Part shown: in pieces, positions 8,879-14,965 of the stretch
Position numbering within the stretch: position 1 is the first letter of the stretch
Layout of the letters: every line of letters begins with the position of its first letter
Assembly: GCA_028065135.1 (NCBI GenBank)
Contig: JAPTWR010000049.1
Location: forward strand, 1-29,787
Source of the DNA: Acidithiobacillus sp.
GTDB lineage: Bacteria; Pseudomonadota; Gammaproteobacteria; Acidithiobacillales; Acidithiobacillaceae
Length of the DNA stretch: 29,787 nt
Direction: 5' to 3'
Notes under the pieces: model-generated
Databases searched by the model: none
Seen by the model: the letters and a program-made list of their open reading frames with translations, nothing else
What the model was told of the DNA's origin: nothing
Made by a program: the position numbers and the translations under genes

Positions 8879-9280
8879 ATGACAGAGCCAAACGGGTTGA
8901 TAAGCGCATTAGACGGGGCGCAGGGGCGCATTGACGCCCTGGCGAGGCAGCAGGCTGCGGGGATGTCCTTGCCGGAGCTGGTGGCGGCGGGGGTGGCGGA
9001 GGCATCCGCCATGTTGCGCATCATGCTGGCTGCGGAGCACAAGCCTTATGCCCATGATGCGGATTTGCTGGAATTGTGGAAGGCGCTGGTGAAGGGCGCC
9101 CCTCACTGGAATACCATCCGCGATAATTGTCGTGAATTGGTTTTTTACCAGAATTGCCTGAAGGCAGGGCGTGCCGACGCGCTGCCCGCACAACCGGAGC
9201 GCATGGTGATCCATACCCTGCGCCATATCTGCCTTTATCTGCGCAGTCATGTCGAGCAAAACAACGGGGACGATATATGA
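8879..9280 (+). CDS. Small helical protein leading the AAA+/VWA operon, unknown function
   Basis: The 133-residue protein is predicted mostly helical: an alanine/leucine-rich N-terminal half (ALDGAQGRIDALARQQA, VAEASAMLRIMLAAEHK) and a second half with RDNCRELVFYQNCL and MVIHTLRHICLYLRSH. It has no membrane segment or known domain that I recognise. The third of three stacked starts (GTG 8873, ATG 8876, ATG 8879) is preferred since CAGGAG at 8868-8873 then has a 5-base spacer. Its stop overlaps the ATG of the AAA+ gene (ATGA at 9277-9280), so the two are translationally coupled. By position it is likely an adaptor or subunit of the AAA+/VWA machine; that is inference only. Confidence 0.75.
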   Translation: MTEPNGLISALDGAQGRIDALARQQAAGMSLPELVAAGVAEASAMLRIMLAAEHKPYAHDADLLELWKALVKGAPHWNTIRDNCRELVFYQNCLKAGRADALPAQPERMVIHTLRHICLYLRSHVEQNNGDDI

Positions 9281-10107
9281 GTGAGGCAAAAATGGCAGAG
9301 AGTAACGGCTTGCGCCTGCTCCTCGATGAGCCTTTTTATCAGCCGGTGGCAAATGAGGTTAGGGTGTTCCTGGCGGCGTGGGACCGGCGCCTGCCGGTCA
9401 TGCTCAAGGGGCCGACGGGTTGTGGCAAGACCCGCTTTCTGGAGCACATGGCGTGGCGCCTGAAGCGGCCGCTGGTGACCGTGGCCTGCCATGAGGATCT
9501 GACCAGTTCGGACCTGATCGGCCGCTTTCTGATCGAAGGCAACGAAACGGTCTGGCAGGACGGTCCGCTGACCAGGGCGGTGCGGGAGGGGGCCATCTGC
9601 TACCTGGACGAGATCGTCGAAGCACGTACCGATACGACGGTCGTCATCCATCCGCTGACCGACCATCGCCGTCATCTGCCCATCGAGAAGCTCGGCATCG
9701 AGATCACGGCGCACCGCGATTTCATGCTGGTGATTTCTTATAATCCCGGCTATCAGACGGTGTTGAAGGACCTCAAGCCGTCGACCAAACAGCGATTCGT
9801 CGGCATGAACTTCCATTATCCGCCGGCCGATGTGGAAACCCGTATCGTGATGAAAGAGGCGGGCGTGGATGAGGGCAGGGCGAAGGCACTGGTGGTGGCG
9901 GCGGGCAAGGCACGGAATCTGAAGGAGCAGGGGTTGCAGGAAGTCACCTCGACCCGGGCGCTGATCTATGCGGGGGCATTGATGGTGGCGGGTCTGGACG
10001 CGCTGGAGGCCTGTGTCGTGGCGATCATCCATCCGCAGACGGACGATCCGGAATTGGCCGAGGCGCTGCTGGAGATTTTCCGGACCTTCTTCCCGGAACA
10101 GGGCTAA
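9277..10107 (+). CDS. MoxR-type AAA+ ATPase, CbbQ/NirQ/NorQ family
   Basis: A 276-residue AAA+ protein with Walker A GPTGCGKT (45-52), Walker B ICYLDE ending in Asp111-Glu112, and the stretch EARTDTTVVIHPLTDHRR and VISYNPGYQ that is diagnostic of CbbQ/NorQ. Members form hexamers that, with a VWA partner, remodel or activate a metalloenzyme: Rubisco for CbbQ, nitric-oxide reductase for NorQ. The VWA partner gene follows 9 bases downstream, but no Rubisco, nor or cox gene is present in the window, so the client is unknown. The start at 9277 overlaps the preceding stop. Acidithiobacilli are known to carry two Rubisco-linked cbbQO pairs; this pair could be one of them moved away or a third with another client. 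Confidence 0.88.
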   Translation: MSEAKMAESNGLRLLLDEPFYQPVANEVRVFLAAWDRRLPVMLKGPTGCGKTRFLEHMAWRLKRPLVTVACHEDLTSSDLIGRFLIEGNETVWQDGPLTRAVREGAICYLDEIVEARTDTTVVIHPLTDHRRHLPIEKLGIEITAHRDFMLVISYNPGYQTVLKDLKPSTKQRFVGMNFHYPPADVETRIVMKEAGVDEGRAKALVVAAGKARNLKEQGLQEVTSTRALIYAGALMVAGLDALEACVVAIIHPQTDDPELAEALLEIFRTFFPEQG

Positions 10108-10116
10108 GGAACGGCC

Positions 10117-12612: not shown

Positions 12613-13823
12613 CGGGCGAGGCGCAGACGGTTGCCGGCAGCGTGAACGAGCAGGGAATGCTGCGCCCGCAGATCGCCGCGACCCGCCCAGCGGTTTTCGT
12701 CGGAGCGGCGCGTTACCGGCGGGCGAGTTATGGGAGTAACCATCCCCTGGCGATTCCGCGGGTCTCTCTGACTTTGGACCTCATCAACAGTTACGGGGCC
12801 ATGGCGCCGGAAGAATACCGGCAGGGCCGCCCGGCGAGCCATCGGGAACTCTTCGGCTTTCATACGAAAGAGTACATACAGGCCTTTGAGCGGGCGCAGT
12901 TTCGCGGCGGTGTGCAGGACAGCGATCGTCAGCGTTATCAGTTGGGTACGCTGGAGAATCCTTATTTCCCCGGTTTTTTCGATACGCCCTCCCTGGCTAC
13001 CGGTTCCAGCGTGCTCGCGGCGGAAGCCGTGCTGGAAGGCGTAACCGCCTTCAGCCCCGCGGGCGGGATGCACCATGCCGCACCGGGTCAGGCGCGCGGC
13101 TTCTGCTACCTCAACGACCCGGTGCTTGCCATTCAGCGCCTGCGCCGCGCCGGTCTGCGGGTGCTGTATTGGGATATGGACGCCCACCATGGTGATGGGG
13201 TGGAGGCGGCCTTTGTGGAGGATCCGGACACGCTGACGGCGTCGCTGCACATGGATACGGACTACGCCTATCCCTTTCTGGGCGGCAAGCTTACCGACTG
13301 GCCGGGGCTGGCGGTTAATCTGCCTTTGCCCAAAGAAGTGAATGACAGCGAATATACACTGGCTTTTGCCGAGTTATGGCCTCGCGTCTTGCAGCGCTTT
13401 AGCCCGGACGTCGTCGTTCTGCAGGCGGGCACCGATATCCTCGCACCGGATCCTTTGAGTAGGTTTCGGGTGTCCAACGGCTTATTCTGGCAAGTCGTGC
13501 GCCAGATCGTGGCGGAAAGTCCGCGTCTGCTGATCCTGGGCGGGGGTGGTTATCATCCCGTTGCTTTGGCGCGCTGTTGGACCGGTCTCTGGGCGATTCT
13601 CAGCGGTCGCTCGTTAGCCGCGGAATTGCCCGCATCCGGGCAAGCGTTGCTCCAGGCGGTCGAATGGGAACTGGACGATGAGGATGCGCCAGACTATCGT
13701 CAACAGTTCCTGAGTCTGGAAGATGCGGCCCGGCCCGGCCCGGTGCGTGCCGAGCTGCGTGAACGCCTGGACTTTTTGCTGCACCACCATCCCCTCTTTG
13801 CCAACAGGAGTAACGCTGCGTGA
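12609..13823 (+). CDS. Class I-type deacetylase (histone deacetylase/AcuC superfamily)
   Basis: The 404-residue protein holds every catalytic element of the arginase-fold deacetylases: the His pair in GGMHHA (155-156), the zinc ligands Asp191 and His193 in DMDAHHGDG, Asp276 in QAGTDILAPDPLS, and Tyr315 in GGGGYHP. Bacterial members remove acetyl groups from acetyl-CoA synthetase (AcuC), polyamines or other amides; the substrate is not evident here. The GTG at 12609 overlaps the VWA stop (GTGA), although a start at GTG 12642 or ATG 12657 is also possible because the first 30 residues are poorly structured. A zinc hydrolase co-translated with a MoxR/VWA pair could be its client or could deacylate that client. 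No acetyltransferase or acetyl-CoA synthetase is adjacent. Confidence 0.88.
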   Translation: MTGEAQTVAGSVNEQGMLRPQIAATRPAVFVGAARYRRASYGSNHPLAIPRVSLTLDLINSYGAMAPEEYRQGRPASHRELFGFHTKEYIQAFERAQFRGGVQDSDRQRYQLGTLENPYFPGFFDTPSLATGSSVLAAEAVLEGVTAFSPAGGMHHAAPGQARGFCYLNDPVLAIQRLRRAGLRVLYWDMDAHHGDGVEAAFVEDPDTLTASLHMDTDYAYPFLGGKLTDWPGLAVNLPLPKEVNDSEYTLAFAELWPRVLQRFSPDVVVLQAGTDILAPDPLSRFRVSNGLFWQVVRQIVAESPRLLILGGGGYHPVALARCWTGLWAILSGRSLAAELPASGQALLQAVEWELDDEDAPDYRQQFLSLEDAARPGPVRAELRERLDFLLHHHPLFANRSNAA

Positions 13824-14965
13824 ATGCTGCGGAAAATGGACTGATTCCGGGGGCCGCCAACAGTGCGGGTACCAAGGCCTATGTGGCGCGCTTCGCCGGG
13901 ACCCTCGCTGACGAACACTTCAGTGACTTTTTGAACACCCGCATCAAGCTATCCTCCCTGGGTGTCGGTACCTTCCCCGGTGGCGTGGACGATGTGACGG
14001 ATGTCGCGGTGGCGGCCATTGTGGCGCGGGCCTTGCAGGCGGGCATCAACGTCGTCGACACGGGTGCCAACTACCGCCTCGGCCGGGCCGGGCGAGCGGT
14101 AGGTGTAGGTATCGCGAAGGCGATGGCGGCAGGTATTCAGCGTGAGGAGTTTTTCGTGGTTGGCAAGGGGGGCTTTCTGACCTTCCCTGGCGGACGGCCA
14201 GAAGATCCGCTGACATTCTTCCGTGAGGAGGTGGCGGCCAAGGGGCTGGGCAAAGAGGAGGACCTGGTTCAGGGGGTTCACTGCCTGAGCCCCGAATATA
14301 TTGCCTGGCAACTGGATATGTTGCGCGCGCAAACTGGTCTGGGAACCCTGGATGTGTTTCTGGTGGATCAGCCGGAGGTGCATATCCCTTTGATTGGCAA
14401 AGAACAGATGTATCGCAAACTGGTGGATGTGTTCACCATGCTCGAAGCGGCGGTGCAGGCCAACAAGATTCGCTACTACGGCATTTCCACCTTCAATGCC
14501 TGCCGGGTGGAGACGGATAATACCCTGTTCCAGTCCCTGACCAGCCTTATCGGCCTGGCGGAGAAGGCGGCGGGGCAGGGGAATCGCCATCATCTACGAG
14601 TAGTGCAGTTGCCTTTCAACGCGCTGATGCCGGAGGCCTACACCCGTTTCAGTCAGGTCACGGGGCAGGGCAACATCGGCTCCACCATCCAGGCGGCTTT
14701 CCAGCTCAAGCTGACCATCATGGCCAGCCATCCCCTTGGCAAGGGTCTGCTGGCGCGGGAAGAGGTGCCGTCCCTGCAGGAAGCCATGCCGGAATTGGCC
14801 GATGCCGCGCAGCGCGCCATTCAGTTTGTGCGCTCCACGCCCGGCATAGGCGTCACTCTGGTGGGGCTCAGCACCCCGCTGCATCTCCCTGATGTCCTGG
14901 CGGTAGCCAGACAGCTTCCGCTTTCCAAAGAACGTTATCTGGCCATGTTTGAAAAGGAGCAATAG
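13820..14965 (+). CDS. Aldo/keto reductase-like protein with altered catalytic tetrad
   Basis: A 381-residue TIM-barrel aldo/keto reductase by pattern: LGVGTFPGG at the start, DTGANY with Asp80 and Tyr85, and GKGG with Lys116 give three tetrad members. The fourth, normally His in an LxHxP context, is Asp183 in FLVDQPEV. IRYYGIST and a C-terminal LVGLSTP (NADPH-site region) are also typical. The barrel is longer than usual (about 300-330) because of insertions at residues 130-165. The His-to-Asp change may alter or remove carbonyl reduction. It starts with GTG overlapping the deacetylase stop (GTGA) and closes the five-gene operon. It converges on the 14986 gene with only 20 bases between stops. 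Expected to be cytoplasmic and NAD(P)H-binding. Confidence 0.82.
   Translation: MNAAENGLIPGAANSAGTKAYVARFAGTLADEHFSDFLNTRIKLSSLGVGTFPGGVDDVTDVAVAAIVARALQAGINVVDTGANYRLGRAGRAVGVGIAKAMAAGIQREEFFVVGKGGFLTFPGGRPEDPLTFFREEVAAKGLGKEEDLVQGVHCLSPEYIAWQLDMLRAQTGLGTLDVFLVDQPEVHIPLIGKEQMYRKLVDVFTMLEAAVQANKIRYYGISTFNACRVETDNTLFQSLTSLIGLAEKAAGQGNRHHLRVVQLPFNALMPEAYTRFSQVTGQGNIGSTIQAAFQLKLTIMASHPLGKGLLAREEVPSLQEAMPELADAAQRAIQFVRSTPGIGVTLVGLSTPLHLPDVLAVARQLPLSKERYLAMFEKEQ

What the first reader, a model, noticed from the sequence alone, without database searches (positions are those of the whole stretch)
8879..14965. Five-gene coupled operon: small helical protein, CbbQ-type AAA+, CbbO-type VWA, deacetylase, altered aldo/keto reductase
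Three of the four gene junctions are 4-base overlaps (ATGA at 9277, GTGA at 12609, GTGA at 13820), and the AAA+ to VWA gap is 9 bases, so this looks like one functional unit. MoxR/VWA pairs activate or load a metalloenzyme, yet no Rubisco, nor or cox gene is near. Two enzymes downstream, a zinc deacetylase and an NAD(P)H-type reductase with one changed catalytic residue, would be unusual clients. A MoxR machine with a deacetylase is not one I know.
Basis: partly seen in the sequence, partly recalled or inferred. Interest (0 to 1): 0.7.

Follow-up and report, generated by a model that had tools for sequence, protein, structure and literature searches.

The report
Accessory gene block of sulfur-oxidation lipoate island
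Five coupled genes in a sulfur-eating Acidithiobacillus (an ATP-driven remodelling machine, a histone-deacetylase-type enzyme, a reductase-like protein and a small helical protein) turn out to belong to a larger conserved gene set that travels with the cell's sulfur-oxidation and lipoic-acid genes, so they probably maintain that sulfur-burning enzyme rather than the carbon-fixing one.

Summary
In detail: five collinear genes (8879-14965) with overlaps at 9277, 12609 and 13820. The five-gene frame is too small and its context was missed: lipoate-assembly and sHdr sulfur-oxidation genes lie immediately upstream. In a sample of 229 genomes of the class, the reductase family (14) and sHdrB1 (15) overlap in 14; the deacetylase (14) occurs only in genomes with both sHdrB1 and lipS2; the full-length VWA protein (11) only inside the reductase set. 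The block lies within 20 kb of lipS2 in 8 of 13 genomes that have both. AAA+/VWA is the removable part: missing at five loci, though two of those genomes keep it elsewhere. The AAA+ forms its own branch beside CbbQ and NorQ. In five further genomes (one of this class, four of others) a related deacetylase sits directly upstream of lipS1. Best reading: a maintenance module for sHdr-LbpA, with a Zn deacylase editing acyl- or lipoyl-lysine on LbpA and a MoxR/VWA remodeller acting on sHdr-LbpA. The link to the system is well supported; both substrates are inferred, and Rubisco and acetyl-CoA synthetase are not excluded as targets. A new variant of known machinery; my searches turned up no paper on the pairing.

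The parts
5..340 (+). lbpA (lipoate-binding protein, GcvH-like); true start lies upstream of the window
   Evidence: PF01597 1.4e-29; in G001 the ORF extends upstream
413..1546 (+). lipS1-like radical SAM lipoyl synthase subunit
   Evidence: NF053742 LipS1 2.3e-57, below curated cut-off
1595..2665 (+). sLpl lipoate-protein ligase
   Evidence: PF21948 7.3e-46; name by gene order
2662..3723 (+). lipT FAD oxidoreductase
   Evidence: TIGR02032 2.3e-52; name from gene order in PMC10332631 (passages)
3748..4884 (+). lipS2-like radical SAM lipoyl synthase subunit
   Evidence: NF053743 LipS2 5.7e-58, below curated cut-off
5099..6388 (+). FadL-type outer membrane transporter (lipY-like)
   Evidence: PF03349 2.1e-28; lipY named as putative fatty acid transporter in PMC10332631 (passage)
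6418..6443 (+). terminator-like hairpin with T run, after the FadL gene
   Evidence: consensus scan only; 14 terminator-like sites found against 9.1 expected
6491..6928 (+). hyp145, conserved protein without Pfam family
6933..7940 (+). lplA2, second lipoate-ligase-like protein; catalytic-type Lys in 20 of 22 rows
   Evidence: PF21948 3.8e-26
7996..8370 (+). hyp171 (conserved part; the ORF is open from 7855), no Pfam family
   Evidence: homology starts near residue 48 in many loci
8429..8752 (-). hyp107, divergent gene; Ig-like sandwich, SoxZ among tied best matches
8879..9280 (+). g1, 133-aa helical protein, HEPN-like arrangement, invariant C84, C93, H116
9277..10107 (+). g2, MoxR AAA+ ATPase, own lineage beside CbbQ and NorQ
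10117..12612 (+). g3, CbbO-sized VWA protein with intact MIDAS
12609..13823 (+). g4, classical Zn deacylase (HDAC fold, HDLP-like); start codon uncertain
13820..14965 (+). g5, aldo/keto reductase family member with the catalytic His fixed as Asp
15661..16599 (+). LysR-type regulator conserved downstream in many loci
   Evidence: PF03466 6.8e-50
16598..17353 (+). class I glutamine amidotransferase-like protein (lipX-like)
   Evidence: PF00117 1.1e-05; relatives lie between sLpl and dsrE in L091, L111, L115 and beside dsrE in L110

Best explanation
The block is the accessory (maintenance/editing) arm of the sHdr-LbpA cytoplasmic sulfur-oxidation system. Shown: in the window and in 8 of 13 genomes it lies near lipoate-assembly genes; it co-occurs with sHdr genes; deacylase residues and the VWA MIDAS motif are intact; AAA+/VWA can be separated from the rest. 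Inferred: (1) the HDAC-fold enzyme hydrolyses an N6-acyl-lysine amide on LbpA (wrong acyl groups loaded by the ligase, or octanoyl/lipoyl groups that are stalled or damaged), so that sLpl or LplA2 can reload it; (2) the MoxR AAA+ with its VWA adaptor remodels the sHdr complex or a stuck sHdr-LbpA state, as CbbQO does for inhibited Rubisco, or helps to insert a cofactor as NorQD does; (3) the AKR-fold protein and g1 are partner or regulatory subunits. The deacylase appears tied to the LipS1/S2-sLpl route, the AKR to sHdr itself.
For: Upstream lip genes in the window and sHdr genes in G001. Conserved order across families. In 229 genomes: AKR 14, sHdrB1 15, overlap 14; HDAC 14, all with lipS2 (17) and sHdrB1; full-length VWA 11, all within the 14. 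A related HDAC directly upstream of lipS1 within an sHdr gene cluster in L091, L110 (hdr genes on the other strand), L111 and L115, and upstream of lipS1-lipT at a contig start in L113. G107, which has sHdr but no lipS2 (and no lipS1/sLpl/lipT in the stretches read), also lacks this HDAC but keeps AKR, hyp107, hyp171 and hyp145. In G122 and G208 AAA+/VWA is kept although away from the locus. Six HDAC catalytic/Zn positions conserved in 53 of 53 rows. AAA+ block is a separate group: 94/87 against CbbQ 100/99 and NorQ 100/100.
Against: No substrate evidence. Linkage is not universal: of the 13 genomes with AKR and lipS2, 8 have them within 20 kb, one at about 36 kb, one at about 203 kb and three on other contigs. 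Three of 14 AKR genomes show no full-length VWA (G107, G148, G192, which scored at most 4 candidates a genome), so the remodeller is not essential. Three lipS2 genomes lack the HDAC (G036, G046, G179). In other classes 15 of 19 related HDACs are not beside lip or hdr genes. The HDAC has only class-wide catalytic residues; nothing in its sequence points to lipoyl or octanoyl. Acs, the known AcuC target, is present in all 14. The two LipS-linked HDAC groups are not sisters in the rooted tree, and in the unrooted one the block HDACs were not one side of a branch. The G107 pattern is one genome. Co-occurrence p-values (1.8e-21, 2.0e-16, 8.2e-20) ignore kinship.
Confidence: 0.55

Rival explanations
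1. The AAA+/VWA pair is a fourth CbbQO Rubisco activase that moved away from the Rubisco operons.
For: Closest solved relative is CsoCbbQ; the VWA protein has CbbO size; Rubisco is present in all 14 genomes with the AKR.
Against: Own AAA+ branch. The full-length VWA orthologue was found only in sHdr genomes, although 112 of 229 genomes have some VWA hit at 1e-20. N-terminal 520 residues only 17-21% identical to the three CbbO of G001. Each of the three Rubisco loci in G001 has its own pair; PMC6458275 also lists three cbbQO pairs by operon (passages).
Confidence: 0.12
2. The deacetylase is an AcuC-type regulator of acetyl-CoA synthetase that merely sits in the sulfur island.
For: HDLP/AcuC-like fold; Acs over cut-off in 14 of 14 genomes; it is the only PF00850 match in G001; most related HDACs of other classes are not near lip/hdr (15 of 19).
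Against: In the class sample it follows sHdr + lipS2, not Acs (G107 has Acs but not this HDAC); in five genomes relatives stand directly before lipS1.
Confidence: 0.25
3. AAA+/VWA is a NorQD-like cofactor inserter (for example for an sHdr iron-sulfur or other metal site) with no link to lipoate editing. Not exclusive with the first explanation.
For: The VWA protein's only solved-structure matches are NorD-type; the pair is separable from the deacetylase (G122, G208).
Against: AAA+ not in the NorQ group; no nor gene was recognised in the window's block by me; three of 14 AKR/sHdr genomes show no full-length VWA.
Confidence: 0.3

Closest known systems
CbbQO Rubisco activase
   Same: MoxR AAA+ with CbbQ_C domain next to a CbbO-sized VWA protein with MIDAS
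   Different: separate AAA+ lineage, divergent VWA N-terminal part, coupled to deacetylase/AKR near lip/sHdr genes and not to Rubisco
NorQD cofactor-insertion machine
   Same: AAA+/VWA pair; VWA region similar to NorD structures
   Different: larger VWA protein, AAA+ outside the NorQ group
sHdr-LbpA system with LipS1/S2-sLpl lipoate assembly
   Same: neighbouring genes in the window, co-occurring in the class sample
   Different: this arm (deacylase, AKR, AAA+/VWA, g1, hyp107, hyp145, hyp171, lplA2) was not mentioned in the passages I saw of the sHdr and lipoate papers
AcuC/HDLP classical Zn deacylases
   Same: fold, Zn ligands, catalytic His pair and Tyr
   Different: genomic link to lip and sHdr genes
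Bacterial sirtuin lipoamidases CobB/SrtN (PMC5596343, passages)
   Same: proposed reaction: removal of lipoyl from lysine
   Different: sirtuins are NAD-dependent and of another fold (recalled); here a Zn HDAC fold and no measured activity

Membership tests
CbbQO Rubisco activase | MoxR AAA+ with CbbQ/NorQ C-terminal domain | tested here: met
   PF07728 and PF08406
CbbQO Rubisco activase | VWA partner with intact MIDAS | tested here: met
   D, S, S, D 28 of 28; T 24, S 4
CbbQO Rubisco activase | AAA+ inside the Rubisco-linked CbbQ clade | tested here: not met
   block grouped apart, 94/87 (not starred); CbbQ 16 rows 100/99; long-branch warning
CbbQO Rubisco activase | encoded with Rubisco genes | tested here: not met
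   no Rubisco gene among the block's neighbours; the three Rubisco loci of G001 carry other pairs
CbbQO Rubisco activase | ATP-dependent Rubisco activation | not testable with these tools
   biochemistry needed
NorQD | AAA+ in the NorQ clade | tested here: not met
   6 NorQ rows apart, 100/100; rows called NorQ by the size of the VWA neighbour
Classical Zn deacylase (HDAC) | Hist_deacetyl domain with Zn ligands, His pair and Tyr | tested here: met
   53 of 53 rows
Lipoamidase / acyl-LbpA editing enzyme | hydrolysis of lipoyl- or octanoyl-lysine on LbpA | not testable with these tools
   inference from context only
Aldo/keto reductase | Aldo_ket_red domain | tested here: met
   1.4e-17
Aldo/keto reductase | complete Asp-Tyr-Lys-His tetrad (recalled) | tested here: not met
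   His is Asp in 32 of 32 rows
sHdr-LbpA system accessory | co-occurrence with sHdr | tested here: met
   14 of 14 AKR genomes have sHdrB1 in a sample of 229
sHdr-LbpA system accessory | physical linkage to lip/sHdr genes | tested here: inconclusive
   AKR within 20 kb of lipS2 in 8 of 13 genomes with both
HEPN proteins (g1) | four-helix HEPN arrangement | tested here: inconclusive
HEPN proteins (g1) | R-X4-6-H nuclease motif (motif recalled) | tested here: not met
   no such pair among the invariant or nearly invariant columns of alignment A1, 23 rows
SoxZ (hyp107) | SoxZ fold | tested here: inconclusive

The most novel reading that the evidence does not exclude
A Zn-dependent HDAC-family enzyme is the missing eraser/proofreader of the LipS1/S2-sLpl lipoylation route, clearing wrong or spent acyl groups from the sulfur-carrying lipoate of LbpA, and a third MoxR/VWA lineage is an ATP-driven activase of the sHdr sulfur-oxidising complex, the counterpart of Rubisco activase for sulfur oxidation.
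Probability: 0.25. Interest if true: 0.85.

Novelty: new variant of a known kind. Interest (0 to 1): 0.6.

Why it matters
sHdr-LbpA is a widespread cytoplasmic route of sulfur oxidation, and in the passages I saw its maturation is described only as far as lipoate attachment. A conserved set of a deacylase, an AAA+/VWA remodeller and an altered AKR attached to it would mean that the lipoyl carrier is edited and the complex actively kept working. It also shows a MoxR/VWA lineage close to CbbQO that probably serves something other than Rubisco or NO reductase, and gives a concrete substrate (LbpA) to test for a bacterial HDAC.

Tried and rejected
Rejected: (a) AAA+ as a Rubisco CbbQ; (b) deacetylase and AKR as MoxR clients (they persist without AAA+/VWA); (c) a strict five-gene unit. 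Inconclusive: (d) ruling out Rubisco by absence: all 14 AKR genomes have it; (e) ruling out an AcuC role by absence of Acs: Acs is in 14 of 14; (f) HDAC tracking LipS because LipA is missing: LipA (TIGR00510) matches in 18 of 18 genomes, 17 over cut-off; (g) gene context of the AAA+/VWA pair in L071 and L072 gave no clue by eye; (h) context of three other-class HDACs not near lip/hdr (L100, L106, L107; three of 15) was mixed by eye; (i) two paper searches by A. ferrooxidans locus tags that I guessed by counting from AFE_2550 gave 0 papers, and the guessed numbers may be wrong; (j) a sigma-70 consensus scan of 6300-15800 gave two sites, both on the - strand, none before g1.

Literature: 'no paper found' rests on searches (open-licence PMC only; listings were capped: 15 of 77, 20 of 129, 30 of 257 and 15 of 71 papers shown). 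Passages only were seen of PMC4660213, PMC6458275, PMC10332631, PMC12423496, PMC10451225, PMC11532494, PMC6067878 (its four passages were in the reference list), PMC2754497, PMC5596343, PMC6335251; all others as search listings. Supplements and figures were not seen.

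
Full report
WHAT IS THERE. The organism is probably an Acidithiobacillus of the ferrooxidans group: the nearest held genome, G001, shares 88% of the window's sampled words and carries the AAA+ at 100%; named Acidithiobacillus records carry the deacetylase at 74-97%, A. ferruginosus highest.

CONTEXT. On the same strand, from the window's left end, come lbpA, lipS1, sLpl, lipT, lipS2 and a FadL-type gene (the LipS1/LipS2 models hit below their curated cut-offs). In G001 the stretch before that is hdrC1-hdrB1-hdrA-hyp-hdrC2-hdrB2-lbpA-dsrE-lbpA (Hdr models, below cut-offs), which fits the sHdr cluster of A. 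ferrooxidans, AFE_2555-2550 (PMC2754497, passages). [quoted passage not shown] the window's FadL gene and the GATase-like gene at 16598-17353 fit. Between lipY and the five genes lie hyp145, a second ligase-like gene (lplA2), hyp171 and the divergent hyp107.

CONSERVATION. In 33 loci with the AKR or the deacetylase, all five genes are in order in 21: G001, 14 Acidithiobacillus or near-relative records, and L024, L025, L027, L029, L031, L032 of other families. L030 and L034 have the last four. Parts of the wider order (hyp145, lplA2, hyp171, hyp107 before the block) are kept in L024, L025, L027, L029, L030 and L031; L032 has only hyp107 there, L034 hyp171 and hyp107 (hyp145 and lplA2 just outside in L065). 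AAA+/VWA is missing from the locus in L028, L033, L035, L036 and L054; in L028, L035 and L054 g1 is followed directly by the deacetylase, so the pair looks like an insertable piece. Physical linkage to the lip genes is common but not universal: of 13 genomes with AKR and lipS2, 8 have them within 20 kb, one at about 36 kb (G122), one at about 203 kb (G020), three on other contigs (G148, G152, G208).

CO-OCCURRENCE (229 genomes of the class, same n each time). AKR at 1e-30: 14. sHdrB1 at 1e-100: 15, those 14 plus G168. lipS2 at 1e-80: 17, 13 of the 14 (not G107) plus G168, G036, G046, G179. Deacetylase at 1e-60: 14, 13 of the 14 (not G107) plus G168. Full-length VWA: 11, all in the 14 (not found in G107, G148, G192; at most 4 candidates a genome scored). 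Families f53 and f90 each hold, in the sample, one genome with both sHdrB1 and AKR and one with neither. Naive p-values are and ignore kinship. G107 is informative: it has the sHdr cluster with two LbpA genes, no lipS2 genome-wide and no lipS1/sLpl/lipT in the stretches read; it lacks the deacetylase and the full-length VWA, and g1 and lplA2 are not found at the locus; it keeps AKR, hyp107, hyp171 and hyp145. So the deacetylase seems to go with the LipS/sLpl route and the AKR with sHdr. This is one genome.

OTHER CLASSES. In 349 genomes of the phylum the deacetylase reaches 1e-45 in 20: G001 and 19 of other classes. I compared the surroundings of all 19 with the reference genes by tblastn: four (G550, G281, G468, G232) have it directly upstream of lipS1 with further lip genes, and the first three with GATase, dsrE and hdr genes as well; 15 (14 long stretches, one short contig) show no lip or hdr gene nearby. 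With G168 of the window's class that makes five LipS1-linked cases. In the rooted tree these five are one clade (100/100), sister to the unlinked ones (100/99), and the block deacetylases another (100/99) (with long-branch warnings); in the earlier unrooted tree the five were one group (100/99) but the block needed two changes. So the link arose twice, or once with later loss. AKR outside the class: 5 of 349 beyond G001, at 32-38% identity only.

AAA+ AND VWA. The AAA+ tree (40 rows) puts 18 block rows in one group (94/87, not starred), 16 Rubisco-linked or PDB CbbQ rows in another (100/99) and 6 rows beside NorD-sized genes in a third (100/100), with a warning that long branches meet. In G001 three further CbbQ-like genes lie beside carboxysomal, form II and form I Rubisco genes (forms named by me). 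The VWA protein has CbbO length and 35-39% identity to the three CbbO in the VWA part, but 17-21% in the first 520 residues.

MECHANISM. Context ties the block to sHdr-LbpA. A deacylase beside enzymes that load acyl and lipoyl groups on a lysine most simply acts on that amide. Bacterial lipoamidases in the passages seen are sirtuins (PMC5596343); a survey of bacterial classical deacylases has no occurrence of lipoyl or octanoyl in its main text and reports one de-decanoylase (PMC11532494, passages). AAA+/VWA by analogy remodels an inhibited complex (CbbQO) or assists cofactor insertion (NorQD). These two steps are inference.

NOVELTY. No paper joining sHdr or LipS/LbpA with a deacetylase or with MoxR appeared in the searches listed under Tried and rejected; six sHdr, LbpA or Acidithiobacillus sulfur papers searched inside had 0 occurrences of 'deacetylase' in the main text. 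The library holds open-licence papers only.

Noticed in passing
   Followed up: partly
G001 C1:545331-546716: A second hdrB1 homologue (90%) about 26 kb from the sHdr cluster; the tool counts one TGA and one TAA inside the match.
   Followed up: no
window 8429-8752 (-): hyp107, a tiny conserved sandwich protein with the well conserved stretch NNLQYNANRDPQVYR; relatives also in Burkholderiales MAGs.
   Followed up: partly
window 6933-7940: Second lipoate-ligase-like gene with the catalytic-type lysine in 20 of 22 rows; its substrate is open.
   Followed up: partly
L050 2245-4076: VWA gene matched only in two pieces (residues 1-371 and 625-829) in this MAG contig; a broken gene or an assembly fault.
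   Followed up: no
G230 C65:78510-79604 and G259, G287, G306, G364: Distant AKR relatives (32-38%) in other classes; contexts not read.
   Followed up: no
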